This document shows, piece after piece, positions 48,852 to 64,000 of a stretch of DNA of 64,000 bases (positions are counted from its first letter, which is position 1; the number at the start of each line of letters is the position of its first letter). The translations under genes and the position numbers were made by a program. The notes under the pieces are model-generated. The model saw only the letters and a list, made by a program, of their open reading frames with translations, was not told the DNA's origin and did no database searches. Source of the DNA: Alistipes sp. Its GTDB lineage: Bacteria; Bacteroidota; Bacteroidia; Bacteroidales; Rikenellaceae. The DNA lies in contig JAGBIC010000032.1 in assembly GCA_017935185.1 (NCBI GenBank), positions 1-64,000 of the forward strand, read 5' to 3'.

Positions 48852-48929
48852 GGTGGATGTAGCTCAGTCGGTTAGAGTGACGGATTGTGGTTCCGAAGGT
48901 CGTGGGTTCGAATCCCATCTTCCACCCCA
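48852..48929 (+). tRNA. tRNA-His (anticodon GTG), probable integration target
   Basis: The extra G at position -1 (48852) opposite C73 is the hallmark of tRNA-His. The loop TTGTGGT gives anticodon GTG, the T-arm is GTGGGTTCGAATCCCAT, and CCA is encoded. Two non-pairs are visible: A27-A43 at the top of the anticodon stem and T6-T67 in the acceptor stem. An integrase gene lies 133 bp downstream in the same direction, so the 3' half of this gene is probably the attachment site of the element. Confidence 0.92.
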
Positions 48930-48954
48930 GAAACAACGTAAAGTACTGAAAATG

Positions 48955-48987
48955 AGGGTTATCACAACAATGATAACCCTTTTTTTG
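48955..48987 (+). terminator. Terminator after tRNA-His
   Basis: AGGGTTATCA/TGATAACCCT with a 6-base loop and seven T, between the tRNA and the integrase gene. It insulates the integrase from tRNA transcription. Confidence 0.9.
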
Positions 48988-48995
48988 TGTCCGTA

Positions 48996-49062
48996 TTTGT
49001 AGCCCAAATGCTGCAAGGGCCAAAATGGGCTACAAAATTGTTTAATTTTAACGTTTTGTAGC
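48996..49062. repeat. Inverted repeat plus third half-site before the integrase gene
   Basis: TTTGTAGCCCA (48996-49006) and TGGGCTACAAA (49026-49036) are perfect 11-bp inverted copies. A third TTTGTAGC lies at 49055-49062, abutting the integrase ATG. Placement between the tRNA end and the integrase suggests integrase arm sites or an autoregulatory operator. Confidence 0.7.
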
Positions 49063-50208
49063 ATGCAAAGAACCACATTCTCAATCACTTACTACTGCCG
49101 TGATAGTAAGAAAAACAAGCAAGGACAAGCCCCTCTTGAGATGTGTATAAACATCAATCAAGAAAGACTCTTTGTCAATCTTCCAACAAAACTTTCACCT
49201 AAGGTCTTTCGTAAACGTAGAAAACCTGTTGAAATTGAAGAGTTATTGACTCAGTACAGAGTTAAAGTAAGCGAAATAATAACACAGTTGATGAACGAAG
49301 GTGTCCCTATTACTGCAAATTGTATTAGGGAATACATGAGGACTGGCGGGACCAAAAGTATTACCATTGAAATGTTATGCGTGGAATATTTGGGTATTAT
49401 CAAGAAAAGAGTTGGCAAAACTATGACACTCCAGGTATATAAGAAGTATGAGTTGGTTAGGGACTTTCTGTTTGAGGTACTGTCGCCCAATAAAGAACTG
49501 TGTGCTATCGTAAATGCTGACATGGTTAAAATATACGATATTCTAAAGGAGCGATTTATGCCATCAACTTCAGCGGGGTACATGGTTAAGGTTAAAACCT
49601 TCTTTAACTATGCCATAGATAATAACTGGATGAAGATAAATCCATTCAATGGCATCAAGATAGATAAGGGAATACCAGAGGTTAAATATCTGTCAGCTGA
49701 TGATATGGAAAATATTAAAAGGCTTGATTTGACAGATTACGAAAGATTGGAAAGAGTTAGAGATTTATTGCTTTTTCAGGCCTCTGTAGGTACTGCGTAT
49801 TGTGATTTGGTTAATTTTAGTGTAGAAAAAATCGTCAAAGTGGGAGATGTTTACGTTTATAGCGATAAGCGTCAAAAGACTGGAATAAAGTTTTCTGCGG
49901 TTATCCTACCTATGGGATTAAAGATACTTGATAAGTACCATGGGAAATTACCTATCATATCTAATCAAAAATATAACAGCTACCTTAAGGAGATACAAAG
50001 ATTGGCTGGCATAGATACGGTAATTACTTCACATCTCTTAAGAAAAACCTATGCTCATACCTTGCTTAATAATGGAGTGAACATATCTGTGGTGGCTAAA
50101 TGCCTTGGTCATACGAATACCATCATTACTCAAAAGACCTATGCTCGACCAACAGACCTTTTTGTGGCGAATGAAGTTAGTAAGATGATTAAGCTATTTG
50201 AATTGTAA
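49063..50208 (+). CDS. Tyrosine recombinase/integrase of the element
   Basis: A 381-residue integrase with the Bacteroidota layout. The N-terminal arm-binding domain (about 1-90) starts MQRTTFSITYYCRDSKKNKQ, the SAM-like core-binding domain covers about 100-195, and the catalytic domain about 205-375. In the catalytic domain the box usually containing Arg I reads VGTAYCDLVNF without Arg. The Lys is in KRQKTG, HxxR is SHLLRK (H324, R327), the second His is H350 (CLGHTN) and the nucleophile is Y360 (KTYARP). Missing Arg I also occurs in CTnDOT-type integrases, so it does not imply inactivity. Next to tRNA-His it presumably catalyses insertion and excision there. Confidence 0.92.
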   Translation: MQRTTFSITYYCRDSKKNKQGQAPLEMCININQERLFVNLPTKLSPKVFRKRRKPVEIEELLTQYRVKVSEIITQLMNEGVPITANCIREYMRTGGTKSITIEMLCVEYLGIIKKRVGKTMTLQVYKKYELVRDFLFEVLSPNKELCAIVNADMVKIYDILKERFMPSTSAGYMVKVKTFFNYAIDNNWMKINPFNGIKIDKGIPEVKYLSADDMENIKRLDLTDYERLERVRDLLLFQASVGTAYCDLVNFSVEKIVKVGDVYVYSDKRQKTGIKFSAVILPMGLKILDKYHGKLPIISNQKYNSYLKEIQRLAGIDTVITSHLLRKTYAHTLLNNGVNISVVAKCLGHTNTIITQKTYARPTDLFVANEVSKMIKLFEL

Positions 50209-50230
50209 TATGTCGTGAAATCACAAAAAA

Positions 50231-50271
50231 ATGGGTACAACCCCTATTGATTAGATGGAGATTGTACCCAT
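50231..50271. terminator. Hairpin between convergent integrase and Rad52-like genes
   Basis: Perfect 10-bp arms ATGGGTACAA/TTGTACCCAT with a 21-base loop, between two convergent stops; no strong T-run. Confidence 0.6.
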
Positions 50272-50277
50272 AAAAAC

Positions 50278-51159
50278 TTAAGCAGCTCGCTTTTCATTCC
50301 ATTTGATGTAAAGCTGCTCCACATTCATTTGACCTTTCCAGCTTCCAGCTTCAATTCGGCCTTTGTAGTAGTTGTAGAACTGTTTCATCCTGTTGGTCTT
50401 GTCGGTTTGTGCTTCATACCAATCATTAAGTACATTCAATTGAATGGAATGTGGTGATGATTGAGATGGAGACTGAGATGGAGATACTGGTGTAGCTGAA
50501 GGTTTGGGTAATTCAACAACATTTCTCTCAGAATCATCATGCCACATCAAATCTTCATCAAGTTGATTATCTGCGTCATCCACCTGCTTGACACTCTTTG
50601 CAGGGGTGGGTTCTCCCCACTTGAAACGCTCGTGTCCCCACTTGTCAATGATTGTAAGACTCGTGATAACTCCGTTATCAACAGACATCTCCTTAACCTT
50701 GAAGGATTGGCACAACTTACCGTTGAACATGTCTTTGTCAGTCAATTGAACAACAATCTTAGGAGCAGTATAGAGTTCTCGACCAATACCCCAAGAGACG
50801 GCAGCTCTCTTAAAGGCATCAGATGCGAGTCCCTTATCAGCCTCGATATTACTCTCAGAGCCAGTGTCTGATTTCCATAACCATTCACCAGTTGTAGGGC
50901 TACGAATACCTATCTTGCACATTAACAGTCCTTTGGCCTCATAATACTCTTTTTGCCAGCCCAGAGTACCAAGGGTCTCATCAAGGATGTTCATGCCACA
51001 TCGTGCATCTTGGTAGAGTAGCAATGTAGTCTTACCATTACGAGCTTCTGCTGGACGCACCTCAACCTCATCAGCTCTAAGACTTCTAAATGAAAGGGGA
51101 GTGTGTATCATTTCAACTCCCGAGGGGTTCATACCCTCTAGATTCTCTATATGATTCAT
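50278..51159 (-). CDS. Rad52/DdrA-like single-strand annealing protein (probable)
   Basis: A 293-residue protein. Residues about 25-160 resemble the Rad52/DdrA annealing domain: DARCGMNILDETLGTLGWQK, ESNIEADKGLASDAFKRAAV and SWGIGRELYTAP, the last resembling the conserved RAAxxFGLGRxLY-type segment. Residues 175-245 form a low-complexity linker rich in Ser, Pro and Gln, and the last 45 residues may bind a partner such as SSB. Such proteins promote annealing during phage or element recombination and replication. It is the last gene of the minus-strand replication operon, 20 bp after the small protein gene. The family call is by pattern, not search. Confidence 0.6.
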   Translation of the reverse strand: MNHIENLEGMNPSGVEMIHTPLSFRSLRADEVEVRPAEARNGKTTLLLYQDARCGMNILDETLGTLGWQKEYYEAKGLLMCKIGIRSPTTGEWLWKSDTGSESNIEADKGLASDAFKRAAVSWGIGRELYTAPKIVVQLTDKDMFNGKLCQSFKVKEMSVDNGVITSLTIIDKWGHERFKWGEPTPAKSVKQVDDADNQLDEDLMWHDDSERNVVELPKPSATPVSPSQSPSQSSPHSIQLNVLNDWYEAQTDKTNRMKQFYNYYKGRIEAGSWKGQMNVEQLYIKWNEKRAA

Positions 51160-51179
51160 ACTATATTAGATTAACCTTA

Positions 51180-51545
51180 TTATTTATTTATTAATACGCT
51201 ATCGTACATTATCCACATTTCCTCTATGCTTTTAGCAGTATCCATGACGACATCGACTTTATCCATATCAGGCTTGTCGCCTTCAAGATATATTATTACT
51301 TCTACTTCTCCCGTGCGGCAAAATGTAATTTGATTGCCGTAAAACTGGATTTCAATACGGTCATCATTGGCTTTTACCTTGAAATTGTCATCGTCCAACT
51401 CATAGTAAGTGGTGTAGTTGGTTGTCATTGCCAAATACTCTTTGACATTCTGCTCAAACTTCTTTATCAGGATTGCCTTCTGTGCATTTACGGTTGCCAC
51501 CTCCATATTTTGATTCATATGAATAACAGCAGTTGACCTATACAC
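51180..51545 (-). CDS. Small element protein, unknown
   Basis: A 121-residue protein with no recognised family. The alternative start at 51518 (MNQNMEVATVNAQKAILIKK) would remove nine residues. Predicted layout: N-terminal helix (QKAILIKKFEQNVKEYLAMT), a beta-rich middle (NFKVKANDDRIEIQFYGNQI, EVEVIIYLEG) and a C-terminal acidic helix. It has no signal or membrane segment. It lies between the primase-helicase and Rad52-like genes, so a role in element replication is plausible but not shown. Confidence 0.65.
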   Translation of the reverse strand: MYRSTAVIHMNQNMEVATVNAQKAILIKKFEQNVKEYLAMTTNYTTYYELDDDNFKVKANDDRIEIQFYGNQITFCRTGEVEVIIYLEGDKPDMDKVDVVMDTAKSIEEMWIMYDSVLINK

Positions 51546-51617
51546 CGCAAGGTTCTAAGATTGTAAATTGGGTACAACTGGGTTTGAAGACCGTTTCCCC
51601 TTGCCGTCTTGTGATTG

Positions 51618-53459
51618 TTATACTCTTTTCGCTTCATTGAACATATACATCAGTGTTCCAAGGCCTATGTCATTTCCGCTACCGTAGCTTTCAACTATCT
51701 TATCATATTGATTATCACATTCATACCTGTCATACTTTGGCGATAGTGAAGATATTGAGTGGAAGTATTGTCTGCCCGACTCACCAAACTCACTGCACAA
51801 TGACATACCTATCTTGAACCACGAGTGGTAGTCGTCAGGAAGAGTTAGATTATTGTCTATCAAATACTTAATTTGCTCCTCAACCCTTTGAGCGTTATCA
51901 GTAGAGGTTGTGTGATAGCTGAACTCACGAGGGGTATAGGTTGTGGACACCCGAGTCTCCCTTTTAGGCTCACCTACCATCTTGTAGTAGGTGAGCGCAT
52001 AAGGATTGTAATAAGGCTCCTCATTGTAAGAAGCAAATCGAAGACGAGTGGTGTCTTTACACGCCTTGTCGATGGTAATACCGTACTCCTTAAAGTCTTT
52101 TTCCAATGCCAAGTAGTGCTCTTTCAATCGTTTAGGGTCATCAACCCTGCATATCGCAAAGTAGCCATCTCCAGAAATCGACCTGCCAGCATATATAACA
52201 AAGTCCATCTGCTTCAGGATGTTAGGAACCTCTGGCATTACCTCAACGTTATCCTTATAATCAATATCAATCGCTATTAGCCCTGAGTATTCAGCTACCT
52301 TATCTCTCTTTCGCTCCGTGAAACGTCCGCTGACAGTTGCACATGGAAGGGCGGTACGATACCTATTCTTGATTTCGTGTCTTTCCTCAATCGTACTACC
52401 ACTACGAATGGCCTCTGCAATATCCTTGTACTGGTCAGTAAACAGGAAGTCCTTAAGATTTACAGTTGTTCCAATATTGTCGCTAACTCCCTTATATAGA
52501 GACACCTCAACGTTGAGTGGGTCATTTACAACTGCTGTCGGGATGGTAAACTCAATGGGTTTGTATGCTATCTCCTCATCGTCCTCAACATAATAGCGAC
52601 CATTGTTTTTATTAGCGTTATAGTAATTACCCGAATCAACATCATACTTCAATCTGCACTCACCTATCTTACCGTAGTTCTTAAACTTGACCTTATCACA
52701 CTTGATGATGGTCTCATCACGGTCAAAGTCTCTATGTACGGTAAGTACGAAATCAGACTTATTGTAAAAGTGAGCACTGCCATTGATGTCATAGGCTTTA
52801 GGACAATAGTAAGATTGCGAAGAGTGATTATAATCCATTTTACGAGGGTGAGCAACGAGGATAACCATAACATTGTATTGGATTGCAAAATTGCAGAGCT
52901 TATCCATGACCTTGCTAACAAACTCTGTCTCAGATAATTCATTGGGTCTTTCAGCCTCAACCTTGTTATAGGCATCTATCACGATGATGCTCACGTTATT
53001 CTCCTTAACAACGGTCTCGCCTATGTCCATAATCTGCGATAATTTGTTAATTATCTGGTAATTACAGAAGTAAAAATTATCACAAACATACAATGCAGTG
53101 TTATTTACCTCTGTCTTACTCGCATCCTTCAACTTCTTGTTGGTGTACTTGCTAACCAGCTTTGCCATGTGGAATGAAAGTGGTTGATTCTCAGGTGAGA
53201 AATAGAGAGTTTTCATACCATACAATTTGTTGTAAGTTGTAGTCAGGAAGTCCACAAACTCCGATTTACCATAGTTGGGGACACCTGTAATAGTTATCAC
53301 CCTACCCCTATCAAGACGGAATAACTCGTCTAAGTTGCTCACATGGGTGTATAGGCCCTGTGGAAGTCCGTGATTGTAAATGTCATTGATGCACTGCATC
53401 AGGTGCTCCTTAGGAAGGAGTGAGGGCATATTGCCTAAATGATTAGTTTTGTGTATCAT
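51618..53459 (-). CDS. Helicase-primase with reversed domain order
   Basis: A 613-residue fusion. Residues about 30-270 are a RecA/DnaB-type ATPase (Walker A GVPNYGKSEF, K65; Walker B SIIVIDAYN; MVILVAHPRKM; a YDINGSAHFYNKSDFVLTVH segment typical of Twinkle-like helicases). Residues about 360-490 match the VirE_N/BT4734-type primase-like domain, with acidic pair AIDIDY (about 398-400), SGDGYFAI and KDTTRLRFASY. Residues about 535-605 resemble a PriCT-2-type domain (WFKIGMSLCSEFGESGRQYF). In Twinkle and phage T7 gp4 the primase is N-terminal; here it follows the helicase. It would unwind and prime the excised element's DNA. An in-frame ATG at residue 11 is an alternative start. Confidence 0.75.
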   Translation of the reverse strand: MIHKTNHLGNMPSLLPKEHLMQCINDIYNHGLPQGLYTHVSNLDELFRLDRGRVITITGVPNYGKSEFVDFLTTTYNKLYGMKTLYFSPENQPLSFHMAKLVSKYTNKKLKDASKTEVNNTALYVCDNFYFCNYQIINKLSQIMDIGETVVKENNVSIIVIDAYNKVEAERPNELSETEFVSKVMDKLCNFAIQYNVMVILVAHPRKMDYNHSSQSYYCPKAYDINGSAHFYNKSDFVLTVHRDFDRDETIIKCDKVKFKNYGKIGECRLKYDVDSGNYYNANKNNGRYYVEDDEEIAYKPIEFTIPTAVVNDPLNVEVSLYKGVSDNIGTTVNLKDFLFTDQYKDIAEAIRSGSTIEERHEIKNRYRTALPCATVSGRFTERKRDKVAEYSGLIAIDIDYKDNVEVMPEVPNILKQMDFVIYAGRSISGDGYFAICRVDDPKRLKEHYLALEKDFKEYGITIDKACKDTTRLRFASYNEEPYYNPYALTYYKMVGEPKRETRVSTTYTPREFSYHTTSTDNAQRVEEQIKYLIDNNLTLPDDYHSWFKIGMSLCSEFGESGRQYFHSISSLSPKYDRYECDNQYDKIVESYGSGNDIGLGTLMYMFNEAKRV

Positions 53460-53485
53460 AATGTAAAATATTAAAAATTAAAAAG

Positions 53486-53935
53486 TTATACTCTTTTATT
53501 ATCAAGCTCGGACCCACTGTATCGTTCAATCGTCTTGCTGTGCAGCTCGTGTTCCTCACCCCTAAATCTATCAGCAATCCTTAGTCGTTCTATGGGATTG
53601 AACTCGTTATTCAAATCGACAATGATATTATTAAGCACCATGTAGTTTACCTTATATATTGTACCCACCTTGCATGTATTCAACACCTCTATAACCTCTA
53701 ATCTCTTTAGCGAATCAACGGCCTTCTTGATGGTTTTGTCCGTCAAGCCCGTATAGATACTTAGTAGCGAGAAGCTTATGGCGGTCTGACCTATATTATT
53801 AAGGTGTCTAATCGTGTTCAATACGTCTCGTTCGCTCTGCGTGAAGAGTATCTGCATATTAATTGGAAGGGCTACATATAAACCGCTATCCAACAAGAAC
53901 TTCTCACCTTTACTTATGTTTTTCTTAGCCGCCAT
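53486..53935 (-). CDS. Winged-helix replication-associated protein
   Basis: 149 residues from the ATG at 53935 (MAAKKNISKGEKFLLDSGLY); the longer frame from 53986 runs through the promoter. A winged-helix domain is visible: TQSERDVLNTIRHLNNIGQT, then SLLSIYTGLTDKTIKKAVDS as the recognition helix and LEVIEVLNTCKVGTIYKVNY as the wing. Such proteins next to a primase-helicase often bind the origin or regulate the operon. It is the first gene of the minus-strand operon, 26 bp before the helicase-primase start. Confidence 0.7.
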   Translation of the reverse strand: MAAKKNISKGEKFLLDSGLYVALPINMQILFTQSERDVLNTIRHLNNIGQTAISFSLLSIYTGLTDKTIKKAVDSLKRLEVIEVLNTCKVGTIYKVNYMVLNNIIVDLNNEFNPIERLRIADRFRGEEHELHSKTIERYSGSELDNKRV

Positions 53936-53956
53936 ATTTCGTTTGTTTTGCTGATG

Positions 53957-54063
53957 CAAATATACAGTAAAAAATAGATAAAACACAGTAAATCAGTGAC
54001 TTACAATTCTAGTCAAGTCAAGTATTGCAAATCCAAGTTTTTATCATTATATTTGCAGTAAAT
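53957..54063. promoter_or_regulatory. Divergent promoter region with CAGTAAA repeats; possible origin or operator
   Basis: Minus-strand TATATTTG (53957-53964) serves the replication operon. TTG (54025-54027) and TATATTTG (54048-54055), 20 bp apart, serve the plus-strand gene at 54074. Between and around them CAGTAAA occurs three times (53965, 53986, 54056), together with a GTCAAGTCAAGT tandem (54013-54024). The stretch is AT-rich and lies beside the winged-helix gene. Confidence 0.55.
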
Positions 54064-54073
54064 CTTATTGGCT

Positions 54074-55039
54074 ATGAAGTACATAACAGACACCGATTTC
54101 TTACCCGAATACAGGGACCTTCACTTTGATTCATATCAACTGCTTTATGGTATCGCTATCAATCAGCAAGAGGAAATGATTTATGACACAATTATCACAT
54201 TGTGTAGAAAGTATAGAGAACCAGTACTTAGAAAATCCAAGGTGGATTACTGGAAAACATTGGTTGATAAGGTAATATCTAGGTTGGACTATATTGATGA
54301 CAAGGCAGATGTAATGGTGTATTTGCCATACAAGCAGAAGTTGTGCACGCCAGAGAGACTCATCCAGAGATACTCCTATGCTCGATTAGTTCTAGAGAAT
54401 GTGCGAGGCCTTGAAATGAATCAGCTTATCAGAAGGGGAAATAAAAGTGCAGATGATATCAGGTGGTTTTATCCCATTAAGAAGTTGGAAGATATGATGT
54501 ATGAAGCAGTGCCAATGTTAGCGGAATTACATCATAAAACAGAAAAAGAAGTTAAGAAAATCGTTGCAAATGAATTAATTAGAAGAGGTATTGAAGCTAC
54601 AGATGCAAATCCAAGCGAGGAAAATGAAAACTTGTATATAAAGGTGTTCTTAAATGGCAAATATCTGAAGGAATTAGTGCCAGCCTCAGAGTCAAAAGAG
54701 GACAATGAACCAATATACGACAAGCATACAAAACTCGAAACGGTAGGGTTTTTATACTATGCTTTGCAGTACTATTTTGGCAAGGTTCAAGAGTTGAAGA
54801 AGGGTGAAATGGAGAAAATGCTGAAGCATGCTGTGATAAGAATTGCAAATGGATTAGAAACGCCTTTAGTTAAATTAGATACGACAAACATTTCAAACAA
54901 CACAGCCTATAAGTATGTGAACAAAAAGCAGTTTAATTGCAATTCTACAAACTTTGATACGCTTGATAATATAGCGCACGCATTGCTCAATCATGGAATA
55001 AAAGTTCCCACGGAATTATCTGATAAAATGAAGAAATGA
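54074..55039 (+). CDS. Element protein of unknown function
   Basis: 321 residues from the ATG at 54074 (a TTG at 54068 would add two residues). No family recognised. It appears soluble and largely helical: DSYQLLYGIAINQQEEMIYD, LPYKQKLCTPERLIQRYSYA, LEDMMYEAVPMLAELHHKTE. The final third (about 260-320) has a small helical domain with KLDTTNISNNTAYKYVNKKQ and LDNIAHALLNHGIKVP that could contact DNA. It has a good promoter of its own, divergent from the replication operon. It is AT-rich compared with chromosomal genes upstream. Confidence 0.7.
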   Translation: MKYITDTDFLPEYRDLHFDSYQLLYGIAINQQEEMIYDTIITLCRKYREPVLRKSKVDYWKTLVDKVISRLDYIDDKADVMVYLPYKQKLCTPERLIQRYSYARLVLENVRGLEMNQLIRRGNKSADDIRWFYPIKKLEDMMYEAVPMLAELHHKTEKEVKKIVANELIRRGIEATDANPSEENENLYIKVFLNGKYLKELVPASESKEDNEPIYDKHTKLETVGFLYYALQYYFGKVQELKKGEMEKMLKHAVIRIANGLETPLVKLDTTNISNNTAYKYVNKKQFNCNSTNFDTLDNIAHALLNHGIKVPTELSDKMKK

Positions 55040-55110
55040 TAGTTAATTGAGTATGGTAATACTACCTTCCCCTTTTAGACGATAGGTGAATTGCGTATAT
55101 ACTCAGTTGT

Positions 55111-55150
55111 AATAATAAATAGGTAGGGCCTACCCCTACCTATTATTATA
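55111..55150. terminator. Bidirectional hairpin between convergent element genes
   Basis: AATAGGTAGGG/CCCTACCTATT, 11 perfect bp with a 5-base loop and AT-rich flanks that extend the pairing. It serves both the gene ending at 55039 and the recombinase ending at 55272. The rest of the 232-bp gap shows nothing recognisable. Confidence 0.7.
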
Positions 55151-55271
55151 TATATTATATTCTTATTATGTTCGGAAACTTTCCGATAGAATAGTCGGAA
55201 AAAATCCTCCTCTTCTTACAATTAGTCTATTTGCTAAATAAACATATCCAAATAAGCAAACTTGCTAATTG

Positions 55272-55859
55272 TTAAAAATCCAAAGATTCATATATCTCTC
55301 CAATCTCCTCGGCCTTCAATCCCAGGTATCTTCTGGTAATCTCACAACTGCTATGTGAAAATATTTCAGATAACTTAATTAGGGCCTTTTCTGCATCAAT
55401 TCCAGCCCTCTCAACAATATGACGACCAAATGTCTTACGATGGCTATGACTACTATATGACTTGATGTTGAGCTTGTACTTAATCTTGTACTCCTTCAAT
55501 CTCATATTGACCCACTCTCTTGAATAGATGGTTCCCAAACGACTAAGGAAGATAGGCTCATTACTCGCTGGCGAACCCAAAGCCTTGTAGCAGTCCTCAA
55601 TATGCTTCTTAAGGTCTTTGTTTACTCTGATTGTCCTACGCTTGCCAGTCTTTTGTTCAATTATAACAATTTCCTCTTTGTCGAGTATATCTGACCACCT
55701 CAACCTAAGTTCATCACCGATGCGTAATCCCCACATGCATTGGGTAGCAATCAATAAACTCATTCTGTAATCACCATCACGATACAAACGATGAACTAGG
55801 CTAATCATCTCCTCCCACTTGAGGGCATCTGCCGTTGTGTATTGTCCTTTAAGTGCCAT
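55272..55859 (-). CDS. Minimal tyrosine recombinase (catalytic domain only)
   Basis: 195 residues with all catalytic positions: R46 (MWGLRIGDEL), K70 (EQKTGKRRTI), H138 and R141 (SSHSHRKTFG), H169 (IFSHSS) and Y178 (RRYLGL). There is no arm- or core-binding domain, giving a FimB/FimE-like size. Such short enzymes often invert nearby DNA or resolve dimers rather than integrate an element; the element already has a full integrase. It is last in a minus-strand run of four small genes starting at 56824. Confidence 0.88.
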   Translation of the reverse strand: MALKGQYTTADALKWEEMISLVHRLYRDGDYRMSLLIATQCMWGLRIGDELRLRWSDILDKEEIVIIEQKTGKRRTIRVNKDLKKHIEDCYKALGSPASNEPIFLSRLGTIYSREWVNMRLKEYKIKYKLNIKSYSSHSHRKTFGRHIVERAGIDAEKALIKLSEIFSHSSCEITRRYLGLKAEEIGEIYESLDF

Positions 55860-55931
55860 TGTAGTTTGATTTATATGCTTGAAATAAGGTTAGTAAAATA
55901 GGTAATTATAATCTATGCTGATTATCAATCA

Positions 55932-55957
55932 CTTTTTACTTTTCTACAAAGTAAAAG
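55932..55957 (-). terminator. Weak hairpin after the 103-residue protein gene
   Basis: ACTTTTTACTTT pairs with AAAGTAAAAGT (one bulge) around a short loop, just past the stop at 55960. It may partly terminate transcription before the recombinase gene. Confidence 0.45.
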
Positions 55958-55959
55958 TT

Positions 55960-56271
55960 TTAATTTGCATGGATTCCATACTCTGCCTCAACACTGCTCT
56001 TATAGTCTGTAGTACGCTCTACGAGTCCATCAATTACATTGACCAAGCAATCTAAATATACATCCTCAACCTTCTCTCCTGTCTTGGCCAATATGACCTC
56101 AAATAGGTCCGTTCCAGCATTATACATCACAATGACCTTGCCCTGGTACTTAAAGCCCTCAACCTGGAAAGACAAGCCCTTGTCCTCAGGGAGCCTCTTG
56201 AAATTATGAGGCCCCCAACTGAACAACACCATTAACTGGCTCTTTAATATCTGCAAAATATACTCTGCCAT
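55960..56271 (-). CDS. Small element protein, unknown (103 aa)
   Basis: No family recognised. A soluble alpha/beta-looking protein: MAEYILQILKSQLMVLFSWG, GLSFQVEGFKYQGKVIVMYN, TDLFEVILAKTGEKVEDVYL, then a C-terminal helix (LVNVIDGLVERTTDYKSSVE). It starts 3 bp after the DUF2693-like gene stop, so they are co-translated. The tight packing with two other small genes is typical of element accessory modules. Confidence 0.65.
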   Translation of the reverse strand: MAEYILQILKSQLMVLFSWGPHNFKRLPEDKGLSFQVEGFKYQGKVIVMYNAGTDLFEVILAKTGEKVEDVYLDCLVNVIDGLVERTTDYKSSVEAEYGIHAN

Positions 56272-56990: not shown

Positions 56991-57019
56991 TTGTATTGAG
57001 TATTAAAATCAAAAACAAT

Positions 57020-57334
57020 ATGGCAGAGAAAGCAACTATTGAAGGCGAGTTGTGCGTTAAGGAGATACTTAAGGCTAGAGGCATAAAGATGAAAGATTTG
57101 GCTGAACAAATTGATATTGCACCTGAAACACTAACTCGTACACTTCGAGGTAATCCCCAATATTCAACACTTAAATCCATTGCAGATTGCCTTGGAGTGG
57201 CTGTTCGTGATTTATTCAAAGGGGAAAATGTTGCTGATACTGACAATGAGATGCGAGGTTGCATTTTCTACGGAGGAGAGATGCACACTTTCAATAGCCG
57301 TAGTGAGATTGAGTATTTCTTGAAAACAAAATAG
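57020..57334 (+). CDS. XRE-family helix-turn-helix regulator
   Basis: A 104-residue protein from the ATG at 57020. The HTH is KDLAEQIDIAPETLTRTLRG followed by STLKSIADCLGVAVRDLFKG, a standard Cro/C1-type domain at residues 15-72. The C-terminal 30 residues (MRGCIFYGGEMHTFNSRSEI) are short and may be a dimerisation hairpin. It lies 35 bp before the SNF2 helicase gene on the same strand, in the position of a restriction controller (C-protein-like) gene, so it probably sets expression of the operon. It could instead be the element's immunity-type repressor. Confidence 0.85.
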   Translation: MAEKATIEGELCVKEILKARGIKMKDLAEQIDIAPETLTRTLRGNPQYSTLKSIADCLGVAVRDLFKGENVADTDNEMRGCIFYGGEMHTFNSRSEIEYFLKTK

Positions 57335-57369
57335 ATTATCAAAGTCCAATTCTATTGACGTATTAAGAA

Positions 57370-60240
57370 ATGAATGGCATAACTACATACCAAGCTAAAT
57401 ATCTGGCGAATTACCTCACAAGGCGTTTGCCAGCTAATGATATTAACAAACTGACAGCTTCACTCCAAGATGCACAGGTGGACTTGACTCCGCACCAGGT
57501 GGAGGCGGCTTTGTTTGCTTTCAAATCACCTCTGTCAAAAGGTGCTATATTAGCAGATGAAGTGGGCTTGGGTAAGACTATTGAGGCAGGTATCATTCTA
57601 TCACAACATTGGGCTGAACACAAGCGCAAGTTGCTTATCATCTGCCCCGCTAACCTTCGTAAACAGTGGTCGAGTGAGTTGCAGGAAAAGTTTTCGTTGG
57701 AGTCTATCATTTTGGAGAAGCGCAGCTTTGATGCAATCATTGATACGGGCAATCTCAATCCTTTTACAACCGACAAGATTGTCATCTGCTCATATCAGTT
57801 TGCCAAGACCAAGGCTCCTTATATTAAGCATACAGATTGGGACTTAGTTATCATTGATGAGGCACACCGTCTCCGTAATGTATATAAGCCAACCAACAAA
57901 ATATCAAATATCATCAAGTCGGCAATTGAGTCTCGCAAAAAGATTTTGCTTACAGCCACACCATTACAGAACTCTATTTTAGAGTTATATGGACTAGTTT
58001 CTATAATCGACGATTTTGTATTTGGAGACTTAAAAAGCTTCAAGACTCAGTTTGGCCACATGCTTGACGATGAGGATTACATGGAACTTAGAGAACGCCT
58101 ACAACCTATTTGCAAGCGTACACTTCGTCGTCAGGTTTTGGAATATATCAAATACACAAAGCGTATTGCCATTTTGCAGGAGTTCTTCCCTTCAAAAGAT
58201 GAACAAGCTCTCTATGATTTAGTCTCAGACTATCTGGCTAGACCAAAGCTATATGCGCTACCCAACAGTCAGCGACAGTTGATGACCTTGATTCTTCGTA
58301 AACTTTTGGCTTCATCTACTTACGCTATCCATGATACTTTCTGTTCGCTTATTGCTCGATTAGAGGCTAAATTACAACGCCAGGAGTCAAATAATCTGGA
58401 AGATGTATATCTGGATTTTGATGGTAGTGATGATGACTGGATTGATGACGAGGAGGTAGAAGAAGAGGAACAAGAAGTACTGCATCCTTCGGATATTGAG
58501 GGTATTAAGAATGAAATCAAGGAGCTTTACGCTTTCCGAGACCTGGCTGCTAAGATAAAGAAGAACAGTAAGGCAGAACAACTTTTCACTGCCCTAGACA
58601 AAGGTTTTGAGCAACTTGACTCACTAGGAGCTCAGAAGAAGGCCCTTATATTTACCGAGTCTCGTCGCACCCAGGAGTTCCTCTATGAGCTTTTGGAGAA
58701 GCGTGGCTATAAGGGTAAGATTGTACGCTTCAACGGAACAAATACGGACCGTCAATCAACGGAGATATACAAGGCCTGGATGGAGAAGCATAAGGGAAGC
58801 CATAAGATTACAGGCTCCCCAACCGCTGACCGTCGTGCTGCCATCGTGGATTACTTCCGAGAGGAGGGAACTATCATGATTGCCACTGAGGCTGCTGCCG
58901 AGGGTATTAACTTGCAGTTCTGCTCCCTGATTGTAAACTATGATATGCCATGGAACCCACAGCGTATTGAGCAGCGTATTGGTAGATGCCACCGCTATGG
59001 CCAAAAGTTCGATGTTGTGGTTATCAACTTCCTCAACAAGGCTAATGCTGCTGATGTTCGTGTCTATGAGTTGCTGGACCAAAAGTTTCAGTTGTTTAGC
59101 GGTGTCTTTGGTGCAAGTGATGAGGTTTTAGGTAGCATAGGCAATGGCCTTGACTTCGAGAAACGTATTGCACAGATATACAATGAGTGTCGTACTACTG
59201 CTGAGATTGAGGAGGCATTTGATGCACTCCAGGCAGAGCTGCAAGCAGAGATTTCAGATAAGATGCTCAAAGCTCGTAGTACCCTGCTTGAAAACTTCGA
59301 CGAGTCAGTCCAGGAGAAGTTGCGTTTCAATTTGGCCCAGAGCTTAAATAACCTTGACCTTTTTGAGAAAAGATTGTGGATGCTGGCCATGTATGCCCTG
59401 CGCAACGATGCGGAGTTTGACAAGGAACACTATCGTTTCACACTGAATAATGGCTCTCTCTTCGATGGCAACTACTTTATGACTTCTGAACGAGAGACAA
59501 AGAGTAGCGTGGAGCTTCCAGATAATGCCCAACCTTTCCGTGTTGGTAGTCCGCTGGCTCAAGCCATCATTGGTGATTACATCAATGCAGAGACTCCATG
59601 TTCGGAGGTCGTGTTTAACTACTCTGGCAGTGAGGGCAAGACAGCCTTGCTGGAAGAGTTGGTTGGCAAGAGTGGCTGGATGCGTGTTGAGAAGGTGTCT
59701 ATTGACTCTTTCGAGCAGGAGGACCATCTGTTGCTTTCGTGCTATACAGATGATGGTGAGGAGGTCTTTACAGATGTTGTTGAGCGTATGCTGCTGCAAC
59801 CCGCTGAGGCTGTAGGTGGCGTAAGTGCCCCAGCAACTATTACAGAGAAGCTTGCAAAACGAATGGAGGTATTGAGGGGTGAGGTTATGTCCCAGAGCGC
59901 ACTTCGCAACGAGGTGTTCTTTGAGGAGGAGATGGATAAACTCGATACTTGGGCTGGTGATATGAAGGTCGCCCTGGAGCGAGAGATTAAAGACCTAGAT
60001 GCTGAGATTAAGCTCCGCAAGTCTAATGCAAAGAAACTTTCGCAACTGGCAGAAAAGGTTGCAGAGCATCGTATCATCAAAGAGTTGGAGAACAAGCGTG
60101 CCGAGAAACGCCAGAACTTGTACGAGGCACAAGACGAGGTGGATGCCCGCAAGGAGACCCTGCTCACCAAGGTAGAGCGTATGCTCGAACAGAAGATTGA
60201 GCAAACAGAGTTGTTTACAATTAAATGGAGAGTGAAATAA
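57370..60240 (+). CDS. SNF2-family helicase of the defence operon
   Basis: A 956-residue SF2 ATPase. Walker A is ADEVGLGKTIEAGII (K69), the DEAH box is IIDEAHRLRN (D163-H166), motif III LLTATPLQNS, and the second lobe carries ALIFTESRRTQEFLY, IATEAAAEGINLQF and PQRIEQRIGRCHRYGQ (about 528-545). An acidic insert (residues 350-375) precedes lobe 2. The last 150 residues are predicted coiled coil, ending in LLTKVERMLEQKIEQTELFT. SNF2 proteins translocate on double-stranded DNA; relatives accompany type III-like Mod/Res genes and DISARM. Base composition is GC-richer than the next gene. The membrane-protein start overlaps its stop (TAATG). Confidence 0.9.
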   Translation: MNGITTYQAKYLANYLTRRLPANDINKLTASLQDAQVDLTPHQVEAALFAFKSPLSKGAILADEVGLGKTIEAGIILSQHWAEHKRKLLIICPANLRKQWSSELQEKFSLESIILEKRSFDAIIDTGNLNPFTTDKIVICSYQFAKTKAPYIKHTDWDLVIIDEAHRLRNVYKPTNKISNIIKSAIESRKKILLTATPLQNSILELYGLVSIIDDFVFGDLKSFKTQFGHMLDDEDYMELRERLQPICKRTLRRQVLEYIKYTKRIAILQEFFPSKDEQALYDLVSDYLARPKLYALPNSQRQLMTLILRKLLASSTYAIHDTFCSLIARLEAKLQRQESNNLEDVYLDFDGSDDDWIDDEEVEEEEQEVLHPSDIEGIKNEIKELYAFRDLAAKIKKNSKAEQLFTALDKGFEQLDSLGAQKKALIFTESRRTQEFLYELLEKRGYKGKIVRFNGTNTDRQSTEIYKAWMEKHKGSHKITGSPTADRRAAIVDYFREEGTIMIATEAAAEGINLQFCSLIVNYDMPWNPQRIEQRIGRCHRYGQKFDVVVINFLNKANAADVRVYELLDQKFQLFSGVFGASDEVLGSIGNGLDFEKRIAQIYNECRTTAEIEEAFDALQAELQAEISDKMLKARSTLLENFDESVQEKLRFNLAQSLNNLDLFEKRLWMLAMYALRNDAEFDKEHYRFTLNNGSLFDGNYFMTSERETKSSVELPDNAQPFRVGSPLAQAIIGDYINAETPCSEVVFNYSGSEGKTALLEELVGKSGWMRVEKVSIDSFEQEDHLLLSCYTDDGEEVFTDVVERMLLQPAEAVGGVSAPATITEKLAKRMEVLRGEVMSQSALRNEVFFEEEMDKLDTWAGDMKVALEREIKDLDAEIKLRKSNAKKLSQLAEKVAEHRIIKELENKRAEKRQNLYEAQDEVDARKETLLTKVERMLEQKIEQTELFTIKWRVK

Positions 60241-61106
60241 TGAAGTGGATAAATAATTTACCCACACGGATAAAGGTGGTGTTAAAGATACTACTTTGGC
60301 TATCTGTTGCTGTTGTGGTGATATATGTAATACCTCGAATAATAAACTACTTGATACTCAAACCCGCATGCTTTGAAGTTGTGGGAGATGGAACACACTG
60401 GTTATCTTTCTGGGGTGGATATTTGGGTGCCATTATTAGTGCTGGTGTAGCCTTTATAATTCTAGGTATTCAGTACCAACAAAATAAAAAAGAGAATAAC
60501 GACAATAGGACGTTGCAGAAGAATGTACTCAAGCACCAAGTTCGCACACAAAGACTAAATACCATTGAAGCGAGGCTGATAGACTACTTTCAATCTTTCA
60601 ATTATGTAGAGATAGATAATCTTGCATATCAAATATTAAATAAGGAAGATAGAAATCCAATAATGGCTAGATTAAAAGAGTTATGGAAAGAAAAGGAAAG
60701 CGCAACATTAAAACTAGAAATGATATTCGTCTCAAGTACTGATAAAGCAGAATCAACATATTTAAGAGCCTTTAAGGATTATGATGAACAATATAATATG
60801 TTAGTAGAAGACTTAATGTGGTTTTGCGACATCGGGTACCATAGTGGAGATGATGCAATGCTAAATAAGCTAGTAATTAAGAGTATAAATGATTATAAAT
60901 CTCGACACCTTCCTGAGAATAAATACCGCATATGGAATTATATTGAAAAATATAATTACAAGATTGTTTCGGAACGCAAAAACATTATTAAAGAACGATT
61001 AGAGGTATTAAATGATTTTGCAGATTGCCTATTGTGGAAAGTAATAAAATCTTTAATTCAATACGAGCAACAAGAGATTGACAAAATACTAAAAACTGAT
61101 AATTAG
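60240..61106 (+). CDS. Two-pass membrane protein of the defence operon, Abi-like
   Basis: 288 residues from the ATG at 60240, whose A is the last base of the SNF2 stop TAA (an ATG at 60225 would add five residues). Two membrane helices, VVLKILLWLSVAVVVIYVI and FWGGYLGAIISAGVAFIILG, are followed by a charged helical cytoplasmic part (YQQNKKENNDNRTLQKNVLK; a middle rich in Lys and Glu). The layout of two N-terminal helices with WGGYLGAIIS and a soluble tail resembles putative phage abortive infection (putAbiC-like) proteins. The gene is strongly AT-rich after about 60,480, unlike the SNF2 gene. Related operons I know of often have a DUF4391 gene here, so this may be a replacement cargo gene. 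Confidence 0.7.
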   Translation: MKWINNLPTRIKVVLKILLWLSVAVVVIYVIPRIINYLILKPACFEVVGDGTHWLSFWGGYLGAIISAGVAFIILGIQYQQNKKENNDNRTLQKNVLKHQVRTQRLNTIEARLIDYFQSFNYVEIDNLAYQILNKEDRNPIMARLKELWKEKESATLKLEMIFVSSTDKAESTYLRAFKDYDEQYNMLVEDLMWFCDIGYHSGDDAMLNKLVIKSINDYKSRHLPENKYRIWNYIEKYNYKIVSERKNIIKERLEVLNDFADCLLWKVIKSLIQYEQQEIDKILKTDN

Positions 61107-61112
61107 CACGCT

Positions 61113-62801
61113 ATGGCACAAGATATAAAATTACAGAAGTTGGAGCTTACCTGGGTAGGTAAGTATGATGAGCAGCAGCCGTTAGAGCCGAGGATTTTGA
61201 TTGAGAATCCAGAGTACTCTTATGGTGAGGTTGAGACGGGTGTTTTGCCAAATGGAAAGCCTTGGAAGGGTAATATGCTTATCCATGGAGATAATTTATT
61301 GTGCACTAAATCTCTTGAACAAGATTATGCTGGCTGTGTTAAATGTATCTGTATAGACCCTCCGTATAATACTGGAAGTGCATTCAATTATTACGAAGAT
61401 GGAATAGAACATTCTCTATGGTTATCTATTATGAGTAAACATCTAACCGCACTAAAACAGCTATTATCAGAAGATGGTACTATTTGGATTATACTAGACG
61501 ATAATGAGGTTCACTATTGTAAAGTTATATGCGATGAAATATTTGGCAGAAATAATTTTATACAAGGCGTAATATGGAAATCTAGCGATAATTCTAATAA
61601 TGATGCCAAACAATTTTCGATTGACCATAACACAATACTAGTGTATAGCAAAAATCCGAATTGGTTGTCTAATAGGGTAGCTGCGAAAGAGTCTCAACTC
61701 TCACATTTCAAGAATCCTGACAATGACCCTAAGGGCCCATGGTTTGATGGTAATCCCATATCATCTCCTCACTACAGAGAAAACCTTGTATATGATATTG
61801 AAACACCTATAGGAACAATAATTAAAGCTCCTAAAAACGGATGGAGATGGAGTAGAGAAACTTTGGCTGAGAAAATGGCTAATGGAGAAATCTATTTTAA
61901 CAAAGATTTCACCAATATTAAAAGACGAACATATCTTAAGGACAGCAAAGGACTTCCTCCTTCATCATTATGGGATGATATAGAAGAGACTGGACATAAT
62001 AGACAAGCTAAATATGAACAAAAAAAACTATTTCCTCATTGGTCTAAAAGTGAATGGTTTGACACGCCAAAGCCTGAAAAACTCATAAAAAAGATTATCA
62101 CAATTTCCACCAATGAAGGAGATATTGTTCTAGACAGTTTCCTTGGTTCTGGTACAACGGCAGCCGTAGCTCAAAAGATGGGTCGTAGGTATATTGGAGT
62201 AGAATTAGGTAATCATGCTTATACACATTGCGCCCCTCGTATGAAAAAAGTAATTGATGGCACAGACCAAGGAGGTATAAGCAAAGCACAAAACTGGAAA
62301 GGAGGCGGAGGCTTCCGCTTCTATGAGTTAGCACCGAGCCTTTTGAAGGAGGATAAGTTTGGCAATCTTGTAATCAACAAGGAGTACAATGCTGATATGT
62401 TGGCTGCTGCAATGGCAAAGCAAGAGGGCTTTACCTACGAGCCATCTGCGGAGCACTATTGGAAGCAGGGATATTCGCACGAGAGCGACTACATCTACAC
62501 CACAACGCAGTTTATGACCGTGGAGGGTTTGGCTGCCATAGCAGAGCAGATGAAGGAGGGCGAGTCGTTGTTGGTATGCTGCACCGCTTTCCAGAAGGAG
62601 TGCCGCAGTGCCTTCCCGAACATCACCATTAAGAAGATACCACAGATGTTGCTTGGCCGTTGCGAGTTCAACAAAGATGATTACTCATTGAATATTGTTG
62701 AGCTGCCAACCATCGAGGAGGAGTTTGATGATGAGCTGGAAGAAGTAATCGAGGAGGTTGCAGCAACCCCAGCAGAAGAGACCCAACAAGAGTTGTTTTA
62801 A
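61113..62801 (+). CDS. Type III-like DNA methyltransferase (Mod)
   Basis: 562 residues, a beta-class N6-adenine methyltransferase: motif IV CIDPPYNTGSAFNYYEDG (D82-Y85) precedes motif I LDSFLGSGTTAAVAQKMG (about 340-357), the order seen in type III Mod. A target-recognition region lies between (about 130-330). It would mark host DNA and, with Res, form the recognition part of a restriction complex. The first 60 and last 170 codons are GC-richer, whereas about codons 70-390 are AT-rich with different codon choice, suggesting a recombined core. It starts 6 bp after the membrane-protein stop. Confidence 0.9.
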   Translation: MAQDIKLQKLELTWVGKYDEQQPLEPRILIENPEYSYGEVETGVLPNGKPWKGNMLIHGDNLLCTKSLEQDYAGCVKCICIDPPYNTGSAFNYYEDGIEHSLWLSIMSKHLTALKQLLSEDGTIWIILDDNEVHYCKVICDEIFGRNNFIQGVIWKSSDNSNNDAKQFSIDHNTILVYSKNPNWLSNRVAAKESQLSHFKNPDNDPKGPWFDGNPISSPHYRENLVYDIETPIGTIIKAPKNGWRWSRETLAEKMANGEIYFNKDFTNIKRRTYLKDSKGLPPSSLWDDIEETGHNRQAKYEQKKLFPHWSKSEWFDTPKPEKLIKKIITISTNEGDIVLDSFLGSGTTAAVAQKMGRRYIGVELGNHAYTHCAPRMKKVIDGTDQGGISKAQNWKGGGGFRFYELAPSLLKEDKFGNLVINKEYNADMLAAAMAKQEGFTYEPSAEHYWKQGYSHESDYIYTTTQFMTVEGLAAIAEQMKEGESLLVCCTAFQKECRSAFPNITIKKIPQMLLGRCEFNKDDYSLNIVELPTIEEEFDDELEEVIEEVAATPAEETQQELF

Positions 62802-62813
62802 TACTTGGAGCGT

Positions 62814-63872
62814 ATGAGTAAGATTGTGTATTTGCTCGGAGCAGGAGCAAGTTATGGCAAAAGGGGTGAAGATAAAATAAAGTGTGAAGTTGAGAGGCAT
62901 GATAAAGATGGTCGTCGTATTATAACGACTATGAACTGCCCAACCCTATATAGAGGAGTTCCAATTGTATCAGAACTTCCTAGTCGCCTTTTTTATATGT
63001 ACGCATGGTTGGATGATGAAATTAATAAGATTAAGAACGACAGTTTAGATAAACGTAATCTAAAAAAACTTGCAGAAGACATCAATTGGTTGCATAATGA
63101 AAGTGGCAGACATGCAACAATTGACACATTCGCCAAAAAACTATATTTAATAGGGCAAGAAGATGATTATTGTAGATTGAAACGAGCATTTACAATATTT
63201 CTCATGTGGGAGCAGATGAACAAGCAACCAGACATTAGATACGATTCTTTCTTTGCCGCTATATTGGGTGATATATATGACGATTTTCCTAAAGAAGTAT
63301 CTATTGTATCATGGAATTATGACTGCCAGTTGGAGTTGGCATACAGAGAATATTGTAGAATAGACTCAATATCAGGGATTGCCAAGAAACTAGGAGTGAG
63401 AGATAAAGCACTTGGAATTAAAAGTGATGATTCTGCAGGATTAAAGATAATGAAATTGAATGGATGTGCTTTAATAGAGGATAATCATTATATTTTAGAC
63501 CCATTTTTTGATACTACTCAAACGCCAATAGGCAGGGTGCTCAGCTTATATAAACACTCTGAGGGAGATAGGACTCTCTTGTCATTTGCTTGGGAGAAAA
63601 TGAATGATGAATATAAGTCTATGATTTCCACACAAGTTGGTGATGCTGAAACGGTTGTAGTTATTGGTTATTCATTCCCATTCTTTAATCGTAAGGTTGA
63701 TAGATTCTTGTTTGAGAGTATGCCTAATCTAAAGAATATATATATACAGGACCCATATGCAGACAGGATAGTTCAAACTTTGCCATCAGTTATACCATCA
63801 CATATATATCCGATAACAAAGGTGGAGAAAATTACAACTACAGACCAATTTTACTTACCTCCTGAATTGTAG
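62814..63872 (+). CDS. SIR2-like protein in the restriction operon
   Basis: 352 residues from the ATG at 62814 (a TTG at 62805 would add three). SIR2-type NAD-binding motifs: YLLGAGASYG (G9-S13), SWNYDCQLE (N168, D170) and a late VVVIGYSFPFFNRKVDRFLF. The catalytic-His position of the KLHG motif reads MKLNGC (N216). SIR2-like effectors in defence systems deplete NAD when phage is sensed; whether the Asn variant still does so is open. The gene is AT-rich, lies 12 bp after mod and 3 bp before the presumed restriction gene. The fold call is firm, NADase activity is inferred. Confidence 0.8.
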   Translation: MSKIVYLLGAGASYGKRGEDKIKCEVERHDKDGRRIITTMNCPTLYRGVPIVSELPSRLFYMYAWLDDEINKIKNDSLDKRNLKKLAEDINWLHNESGRHATIDTFAKKLYLIGQEDDYCRLKRAFTIFLMWEQMNKQPDIRYDSFFAAILGDIYDDFPKEVSIVSWNYDCQLELAYREYCRIDSISGIAKKLGVRDKALGIKSDDSAGLKIMKLNGCALIEDNHYILDPFFDTTQTPIGRVLSLYKHSEGDRTLLSFAWEKMNDEYKSMISTQVGDAETVVVIGYSFPFFNRKVDRFLFESMPNLKNIYIQDPYADRIVQTLPSVIPSHIYPITKVEKITTTDQFYLPPEL

Positions 63873-63875
63873 AAT

Positions 63876-64000
63876 ATGAACCAAGTAGTAAACAATATAA
63901 AACAGCGTTTGTCGCTACGTGAGCCTTTGGCAGAAGCCTTGGAGGTAGTTGCCAAATTAACAGACAAACTTGCATTGAAGAAGCCAGCAGCAGAAGAGGA
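63876..64000 (+). CDS. Start of probable type III restriction subunit (Res), cut by window end
   Basis: 41 codons are visible (MNQVVNNIKQRLSLREPLAE, then ALEVVAKLTDKLALKK), without a stop. The pattern RLSLREPLAEALEVVAKL is like the N-terminus of Res-type SF2 helicase/nucleases (RLSLRPPQxESLEIL) that accompany Mod in type III systems. It starts 3 bp after the SIR2-like gene. Too little is present to confirm a helicase or nuclease domain. Confidence 0.6.
   Translation, partial: MNQVVNNIKQRLSLREPLAEALEVVAKLTDKLALKKPAAEE

What the first reader, a model, noticed from the sequence alone, without database searches (positions are those of the whole stretch)
57020..64000. Composite defence operon: SNF2, membrane protein, Mod, SIR2-like protein and probable Res
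Six tightly packed genes (overlap or 3-35 bp gaps) combine a type III-like restriction backbone with a membrane protein and a SIR2-like protein. SNF2 plus Mod plus Res recalls known type III-associated loci, but a SIR2-like effector between mod and res and an Abi-like membrane protein after SNF2 are not part of the standard sets I know (type III R-M, DISARM, BREX, Thoeris, DSR). Hypothesis: the restriction complex senses unmodified or blocked phage DNA and triggers NAD loss or membrane damage when cleavage fails.
Basis: partly seen in the sequence, partly recalled or inferred. Interest (0 to 1): 0.8.

Follow-up and report, generated by a model that had tools for sequence, protein, structure and literature searches.

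The report
Restriction operon carrying swappable defence genes
A gut-bacterium DNA-restriction operon carries extra defence genes in two swappable slots, one of them an unnamed sirtuin-like protein that lacks the residue such proteins use to destroy NAD, so it probably works differently from known NAD-depleting immune proteins.

Summary
The operon is real and the missing gene is a Res subunit (contig 63876-66554). It reads HTH, SNF2 (DrmD-like), membrane protein, Mod, SIR2-like, Res, with backbone motifs intact. SNF2-Mod-Res recurs: of 62 relatives holding all three, the SNF2-Mod interval exceeds 150 bp in 50, Mod-Res in 29, neither in 7. Cargo includes Septu, HEC-01, PDC-M04, PDC-M29, RloC-like, Abi_2 and GmrSD genes; Mod-Res cargo changes at least 26 times on the SNF2 tree. 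Four relatives carry the SIR2-like gene in the same slot. Type III loci without SNF2 upstream also hold Mod-Res cargo (7 of 9), so that slot is not special to this backbone, and embedded defence genes in R-M loci are in print. What looks new is the SIR2-like family: no library names the window protein, relatives sit beside type III, ISP, IIG and EcoRI-type genes and in phages, and Asn replaces the catalytic His in 29 of 29 rows. NAD loss by the known mechanism is not supported. No structure could be predicted.

The parts
56996..57334 (+). XRE-type HTH regulator (likely start ATG 57020)
   Evidence: HTH_26 E 2e-9, HTH_3 E 1.5e-7; sequence
57370..60240 (+). SNF2/RapA-type helicase, DrmD-like, 956 aa; Walker A GLGKT, DEAH, motif VI intact
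60225..61106 (+). Slot A cargo: membrane protein with two N-terminal hydrophobic segments and a variable cytosolic part
   Evidence: family members in slot A of other loci; a weak relative inside a type I hsd locus, L206 (33 bits)
61113..62801 (+). Mod: N6/N4 methyltransferase, DPPY then FLGSGTT, 562 aa
62805..63872 (+). Slot B cargo: SIR2-like protein (ATG start probably 62814); GAGAS, WNYD, LNG (Asn in place of catalytic His), GYSFP; clade-specific insert after GAGAS
63876..64000 (+). Res: type III restriction subunit, continues to contig position 66554 (L002:3876-6554); GIGKT, DEAH, PD-ETK nuclease motif

Best explanation
This is a type III restriction-modification operon (Mod + Res) led by an HTH regulator and a DrmD-like SNF2 helicase, with an accessory gene in each of two exchangeable slots. 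Shown: the gene set, its intact motifs, its recurrence and the rapid exchange of cargo. Inferred: Mod and Res modify and restrict; SNF2 assists on DNA or strips proteins from it; the SIR2-like and membrane proteins are accessory anti-phage factors that broaden or back up restriction, most likely acting when restriction is blocked or evaded (as PrrC does). The SIR2-like protein probably still binds a nucleotide ligand in its Rossmann pocket but does not hydrolyse NAD by the Asn-His dyad of ThsA and DSR2; it is a ligand sensor or an enzyme of altered chemistry. My confidence is about 0.85 for a type III R-M operon with embedded accessory genes and about 0.3 for the back-up ('guard') step; the figure below is for the whole statement.
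For: Res and motifs. Slots: of 62 loci the SNF2-Mod interval exceeds 150 bp in 50 (47 with a same-strand ORF), Mod-Res in 29 (29 with an ORF), neither in 7. Cargo representatives identified as defence families. At least 26 slot-B changes on the SNF2 tree, at least 3 for SIR2. Among genomes found by the SIR2 query itself, 7 of 10 in the order sample, own genome included, have R-M genes within two genes; one of the 7 is a 75-aa remnant. The same holds for 1 of 11 viral loci (L135). R-M association changes at least 4 times on the SIR2-like tree. Precedent: PrrC is silenced by a linked type I R-M enzyme and activated by a phage antirestriction factor (PMC2610378, abstract and passages).
Against: No experiment. 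SIR2-like genes also occur in phage contigs and chromosomes with no R-M neighbour seen (10 of 11 viral loci, 5 of 5 fetched phylum-sample loci, 3 of 10 order-sample loci; these neighbours were read by eye, not family-scanned), so R-M is not required. V. cholerae TgvAB works independently of the R-M system around it (PMC11411939, passages). Mod-Res cargo is as common without SNF2 upstream (7 of 9). Parsimony counts on the SNF2 tree may partly reflect recombination of SNF2 itself. No random-gene baseline was computed.
Confidence: 0.55

Rival explanations
1. Passenger model: the cargo genes are autonomous defence genes that merely share transfer, promoter and the HTH regulator with the R-M operon; there is no functional coupling.
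For: Cargo is diverse, partly complete known systems such as PtuA-PtuB, changes quickly, and SIR2-like relatives occur without R-M neighbours. TgvAB in a type I locus acts independently.
Against: The SIR2-like family lies beside R-M genes of several classes; the five SNF2-locus SIR2 proteins form one clade (99/98) with a shared insert after GAGAS present in 5 of 5 and absent in the other 24 rows (read from the alignments and, for seven rows outside both, from sequence starts).
Confidence: 0.35
2. One reading: SIR2-like protein is an NAD-hydrolysing suicide effector triggered by the restriction complex.
For: SIR2 superfamily; NYD of the catalytic pocket invariant; DSR2 and ThsA precedent.
Against: Catalytic His is Asn in 29 of 29 rows and no conserved His stands in for it; in DSR2, H171A is called catalytically inactive (PMC11263360, passages). 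Asn at that place was not tested there.
Confidence: 0.1
3. The SNF2 gene marks a DISARM- or Hma-like system in which Mod and Res replace other subunits, and restriction is not of type III kind.
For: SNF2 scores best with DrmD; Swi2/Snf2 helicase plus methylase is shared with the 'BR' systems of PMC12839542 (passages) and, by recall, with DISARM and Hma.
Against: No operon gene has DrmA, DrmB, DrmC or HmaC as best match; Mod and Res score with type III models and keep their motifs; seven loci consist of SNF2-Mod-Res alone, though five of them are close flavobacterial relatives and one has Res cut.
Confidence: 0.15

Closest known systems
Type III restriction-modification (EcoP1I/EcoP15I kind; short Mod/Res subgroup)
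   Same: Mod followed by Res with helicase and PD-(D/E)xK motifs
   Different: preceded by an SNF2 helicase and split by an accessory gene; Mod (562 aa) and Res (892 aa) are shorter than the 630-716 and 966-1001 aa pairs seen in some other SNF2 loci
PrrC-EcoprrI and RloC, effectors embedded in or linked to R-M loci
   Same: accessory gene inside an R-M operon; RloC-like AAA_13 proteins occur in slot A of relatives
   Different: the window's cargo is SIR2-like and a membrane protein, not an anticodon nuclease; no triggering is shown
Hma with embedded candidates and 'guilt-by-embedding' (Payne et al. 2024 preprint, seen only as cited)
   Same: helicase plus methylase with embedded Septu and GmrSD-like genes (so cited)
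   Different: Res in place of the Hma ATPase; the window's SIR2-like protein hits no PADLOC model
SIR2 NADase effectors: DSR2, ThsA, SIR2-HerA
   Same: GAGAS, NYD and GYS motifs of the SIR2 superfamily
   Different: Asn replaces the catalytic His; a protein of about 330-425 aa (29 aligned rows) without a recognised sensor domain; only one weak hit to a solved SIR2 protein (8j4u, E 0.36), absent with the larger profile
Type I and III R-M loci with Sir2, HEPN, ParB and REase toxin-like genes (PMC3506569, 2012)
   Same: couples immunity with suicide genes and notes repeated toxin displacement in R-M loci
   Different: no SNF2 backbone, slots or this family in the passages seen

Membership tests
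Type III R-M | Mod with PF01555 domain and DPPY...FxGSG order | tested here: met
Type III R-M | Res with helicase and PD-(D/E)xK motifs next to Mod | tested here: met
   one gene (SIR2-like) lies between
Type III R-M | one-strand methylation of an asymmetric site and two-site cleavage | not testable with these tools
   needs methylome and cleavage assays
DISARM | drmA and drmB core genes | tested here: not met
   no operon gene is DrmA or DrmB by best hit; SNF2's DrmA score (137 bits) is far below its DrmD score (686). The rest of the genome was not searched
Hma | HmaA helicase, HmaB methylase, HmaC ATPase | tested here: not met
   SNF2 matches HmaA (167 bits) weaker than DrmD; no HmaC match is shown for any operon gene (the best 25 of 52 and of 71 families were shown for SNF2 and Mod)
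SIR2 superfamily (Pfam SIR2_2) | profile similarity and GAGxS/NYD/GYS motifs | tested here: met
   9 of 29 members hit SIR2_2 at E up to 0.1, best 1.9e-5; hhalign probability 92.7 against 4 SIR2_2 proteins. Remote, no structure
SIR2 NADase (ThsA/DSR2 type) | catalytic His in the HG motif | tested here: not met
   Asn216-Gly217 in 29 of 29 rows, aligned with the HG of SIR2_2
Thoeris, SIR2-HerA, pAgo-SIR2 | partner gene ThsB, HerA or pAgo | tested here: not met
   no such match among the operon genes
PrrC-type guard | effector silenced by the R-M enzyme and released by antirestriction | not testable with these tools
   analogy only

The most novel reading that the evidence does not exclude
A distinct, unnamed SIR2-like family with an Asn-for-His active site is a portable partner of restriction enzymes: it has joined type III (with and without SNF2), ISP, IIG and EcoRI-type systems separately, and acts as a guard that senses blocked restriction through a bound nucleotide ligand, or with a chemistry other than NAD hydrolysis.
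Probability: 0.25. Interest if true: 0.75.

Novelty: new variant of a known kind. Interest (0 to 1): 0.5.

Why it matters
It gives a countable natural experiment on how restriction systems take on second-line effectors: one backbone, two slots, and cargo swapped between close relatives. The SIR2-like family shows that a SIR2-type label need not imply NAD depletion, and it offers a defined test of whether a catalytically altered SIR2 protein can guard a restriction enzyme.

Tried and rejected
NAD-loss effector: rejected as the leading reading because of the invariant Asn. DISARM and Hma membership: rejected on gene content.

'SNF2-specific' slot B: rejected by a control. Searches read 25 Res loci (found). 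Nine have Mod before Res, at least two ORFs visible upstream of Mod, and none of them SNF2: cargo lies between Mod and Res in 7 (L169, L170, L172, L174, L175, L176, L185), none in 2 (L173, whose Res is cut, and L186). In L169 seven ORFs lie between, so the pairing is unsure; L174 and L175 carry a weak SNF2-like match (132 and 124 bits) downstream. Two more, L187 (one ORF between) and L188 (none), have Mod at the edge of the stretch, so SNF2 could not be judged. L171 and L182 have a weak, cut SNF2-like match upstream (127 and 91 bits). The other 12 have strong SNF2 upstream, Res before Mod, or no Mod found. Before this recount I had counted L187 and L188 in (8 of 11); the odds did not need changing.

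'Abi-like' membrane protein: no family support. Its relatives outside the backbone gave mixed contexts: L206 inside a type I hsd locus, L203 three ORFs from a TaqI/Eco57I-type methylase, L204 and L205 no R-M seen. Solved structures: one weak SIR2 hit with 15 rows, only chance hits with 29 rows. PHROGs: no hit for five SIR2-like proteins; the membrane protein hits phrog_16113 (E 1e-7, unknown function). Plasmids: no SIR2-like match. Literature: searches listed no title or abstract on SNF2-Mod-Res with a SIR2-like gene; I opened passages of few of the listed papers, and the library holds no bioRxiv preprints.

Rows dropped or limited: one search sorted 93 SNF2 loci; 63 hold all three genes, 62 after removing L030 (same contig as L069); 18 lacked a recognised Mod and 12 a Res and were not sorted further. 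Near-identical loci from different species stay in. In five of the 62 the Res ORF is short, cut or split (L033, L072, L091, L101, L103), in one the Mod (L089). L062 and L110 count as slot-A occupied by gap alone, L112 only by doubtful opposite-strand ORFs. The SNF2 tree has the window and 61 of the 62 (L097's SNF2 is cut). Family scans covered 20 of 54 slot clusters by Pfam and 10 by PADLOC. One search uses 29 rows: left out were L141 (near-copy of L140), L154 (gene in two ORFs), the outlier L149/L207 and two Leptospira phage records not opened. One search recovered 4 of 6 SIR2_2 proteins. R-M neighbours were Pfam-tested for L042, L044, L046, L135, L155 and L156; the rest were judged by eye; L048 rests on a 75-aa remnant like the start of L155's ISP gene.
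Full report
WHAT IS THERE. The window is the first 64,000 bases of a 69,903-base contig in a 1.8-Mb, 49-contig assembly. The operon starts with an HTH gene and runs SNF2, membrane protein, Mod, SIR2-like, Res on the + strand with gaps of 35 bp or less and one 16-bp overlap. The Res gene was cut by the window's end; it is complete on the contig at 63876-66554. Family scans identify the HTH, SNF2, Mod and Res genes. The motifs checked in the three backbone proteins are intact. After a 286-bp gap come a DUF488 gene and its partner, matched by PADLOC's PDC-M19A and PDC-M19B, and a Fic gene near the contig end.

THE BACKBONE RECURS. A scan of species genomes with the SNF2 protein returned 202 relatives of which the best 80 were kept, and a sample of 295 genomes of the order gave 13, own included, with a match at E up to 1e-100. 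Gene calling and comparison with the window's proteins on 93 SNF2 loci found 63 that hold SNF2, Mod and Res in this order, 62 after removing a duplicate contig; in five of these the Res ORF is short, cut or split. Hosts named in the record titles are mostly Bacteroidales and other Bacteroidota, with Acidobacteria, Chloroflexi, Verrucomicrobia, Deltaproteobacteria and others; many are metagenome bins, so single host labels may be wrong. In seven loci there is nothing of note between the three genes; five of them are close flavobacterial relatives and one has Res cut. Both Res relatives found in IMG/VR lie in SNF2-...-Mod-Res loci too, with a membrane-protein relative in slot A (218 bits in L195, 39 in L196).

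TWO SLOTS. In the 62 loci the SNF2-Mod interval exceeds 150 bp in 50 (47 with a same-strand ORF), the Mod-Res interval in 29 (29 with an ORF), both in 24. Slot ORFs fall in 54 clusters; representatives of 20 were scanned with Pfam and of 10 with PADLOC: PtuA/PtuB (Septu), HEC-01A/B, PDC-M29A with an unnamed partner, PDC-M04A/B, DUF1016/YhcG nuclease, SLFN_AlbA_2, GmrSD, Abi_2, AAA_13 (RloC-like, PDC-S06), DUF2130 and Bro-N among others. On a tree of 62 SNF2 proteins (the window and 61 loci) the Mod-Res content needs at least 26 changes, SIR2 at least 3, Septu 4, PDC-M29 5, PDC-M04 4, HEC-01 4 (quick tree, 14 of 59 inner branches open). The closest relative, L049 (water-buffalo colon MAG), is 94% identical in SNF2 but 77% in Res, 69% in Mod, 37% in the SIR2-like protein and 35% in the membrane protein, and carries further genes in both slots.

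CONTROL. Is the Mod-Res slot tied to SNF2? Of 25 further Res loci, nine have Mod before Res with at least two ORFs visible upstream and no SNF2 among them; 7 of these 9 hold genes in between, 2 do not. So cargo between mod and res is common in type III loci of these bacteria and is not a mark of the SNF2 backbone. This lowers the novelty of the composite, and agrees with the 2012 remark that many type I and III R-M loci carry toxin-like genes including Sir2 (PMC3506569, passages).

THE SIR2-LIKE FAMILY. Searches with the protein or its alignment found members in 10 of 295 genomes of the order (own included), 7 of 395 of the phylum (own included, one an outlier that I dropped), 11 IMG/VR contigs, 3 Leptospira phage records and no plasmid record. 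In the order sample 7 of 10 have R-M genes within two genes: the window itself; L042 and L155 (type ISP or its N-terminal part), L048 (75-aa remnant of the same), L046 and L156 (Eco57I/MmeI type IIG), L044 (GmrSD-HNH then EcoRI-type methylase); L043, L045 and L047 do not. Of the 11 viral loci one, L135, has type III Mod and Res directly upstream. In the phylum sample none of the five loci L150-L154 shows one. The four SNF2-locus members L049, L050, L065 and L097 came from the SNF2 search and are not an unbiased sample. A baseline for random genes was not computed.

ITS ACTIVE SITE. Across 29 aligned members WNYD and Asn216-Gly217 are invariant. Profile-profile alignment with four SIR2_2 proteins of the same order, all four with HG, puts Asn-Gly on His-Gly and NYD on NYD. 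In DSR2 the pocket is N133, Y134, D135 and H171, H171A is inactive, and the same residues occur in ThsA and SIR2-HerA (PMC11263360, passages). No column has His in more than 13 of 29 rows. Hence canonical NAD hydrolysis is unlikely, although the other invariant residues (D104, R142, W167, Q172, W260, N292, D296, Q312) show that the protein is under strong selection.

ITS HISTORY. On a tree of 29 members the five SNF2-locus proteins form one clade (support 99/98), and R-M association changes state at least 4 times; several deep branches are weak. The clade shares an insert of roughly 20-35 residues after GAGAS that the other 24 rows lack, which may mark adaptation to this backbone.

THE MEMBRANE PROTEIN. 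Two hydrophobic N-terminal segments, then a variable part. The cluster that holds its relatives lies in slot A in 11 of 11 rows (10 distinct contigs). In 247 genomes of the order the family profile hit 6, own included; of the four outside the backbone, L206 lies between HsdM and HsdS genes of a type I locus but matches weakly (33 bits), and L203-L205 have mixed contexts. Its function is open.

HOW IT PROBABLY WORKS. Mod protects and Res cuts (established for type III R-M; inferred here). SNF2 likely moves on DNA or clears it. The cargo adds a second line. PrrC, held silent by its R-M enzyme and released by a phage antirestriction peptide, is the closest proven example (PMC2610378, abstract and passages), but TgvAB shows that embedded genes can be independent (PMC11411939, passages). 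I cannot choose firmly between guard and passenger.

VERDICT. Observation right; composite idea right but already known in principle; NAD-loss mechanism not supported. The unnamed SIR2-like family and the counted two-slot backbone are the parts worth following.

Noticed in passing
window 48853-56000: tRNA-His (48853-48929) followed at once by a tyrosine recombinase (49063-50208), a Rad52-like gene, a DnaB/primase-like gene (51618-53459) and a second integrase-family gene (55272-55859): the operon probably rides on an integrative element.
   Followed up: partly
own genome, contig C4 24247-24266 and 24462-24481: Two copies of the tRNA-His 3' end on another contig; ARAGORN finds no tRNA in the 2.5-kb locus L130 around one of them. 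Possible attachment sites.
   Followed up: partly
L002:6841-8561 (contig 66841-68561): DUF488 gene and partner matching PADLOC PDC-M19A (396 bits) and PDC-M19B (390 bits), then a Fic gene: a second candidate defence unit after Res.
   Followed up: no
L046:7166-9634: Type IIG-like R-M gene next to a SIR2-like gene contains a Y1 transposase-like stretch (Pfam Y1_Tnp E 1e-11), as if hit by an IS200-like element.
   Followed up: no
L123, L124, L125, L128, L040: DrmD-like SNF2 genes (42-45% identity) follow, directly or after one gene, a gene of about 1650-1690 aa, with no Mod or Res recognised after them: a different system using a related helicase.
   Followed up: no
L031, L054, L055, L061, L063 slot B: A 198-205 aa protein accompanies the PDC-M29A-like ATPase between Mod and Res in all five loci; its representative has no Pfam or PADLOC hit: probable unnamed partner.
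   Followed up: partly
L206:4015-11444: Type I hsd locus with two embedded genes, one (246 aa) a weak relative of the window's slot-A membrane family.
   Followed up: partly
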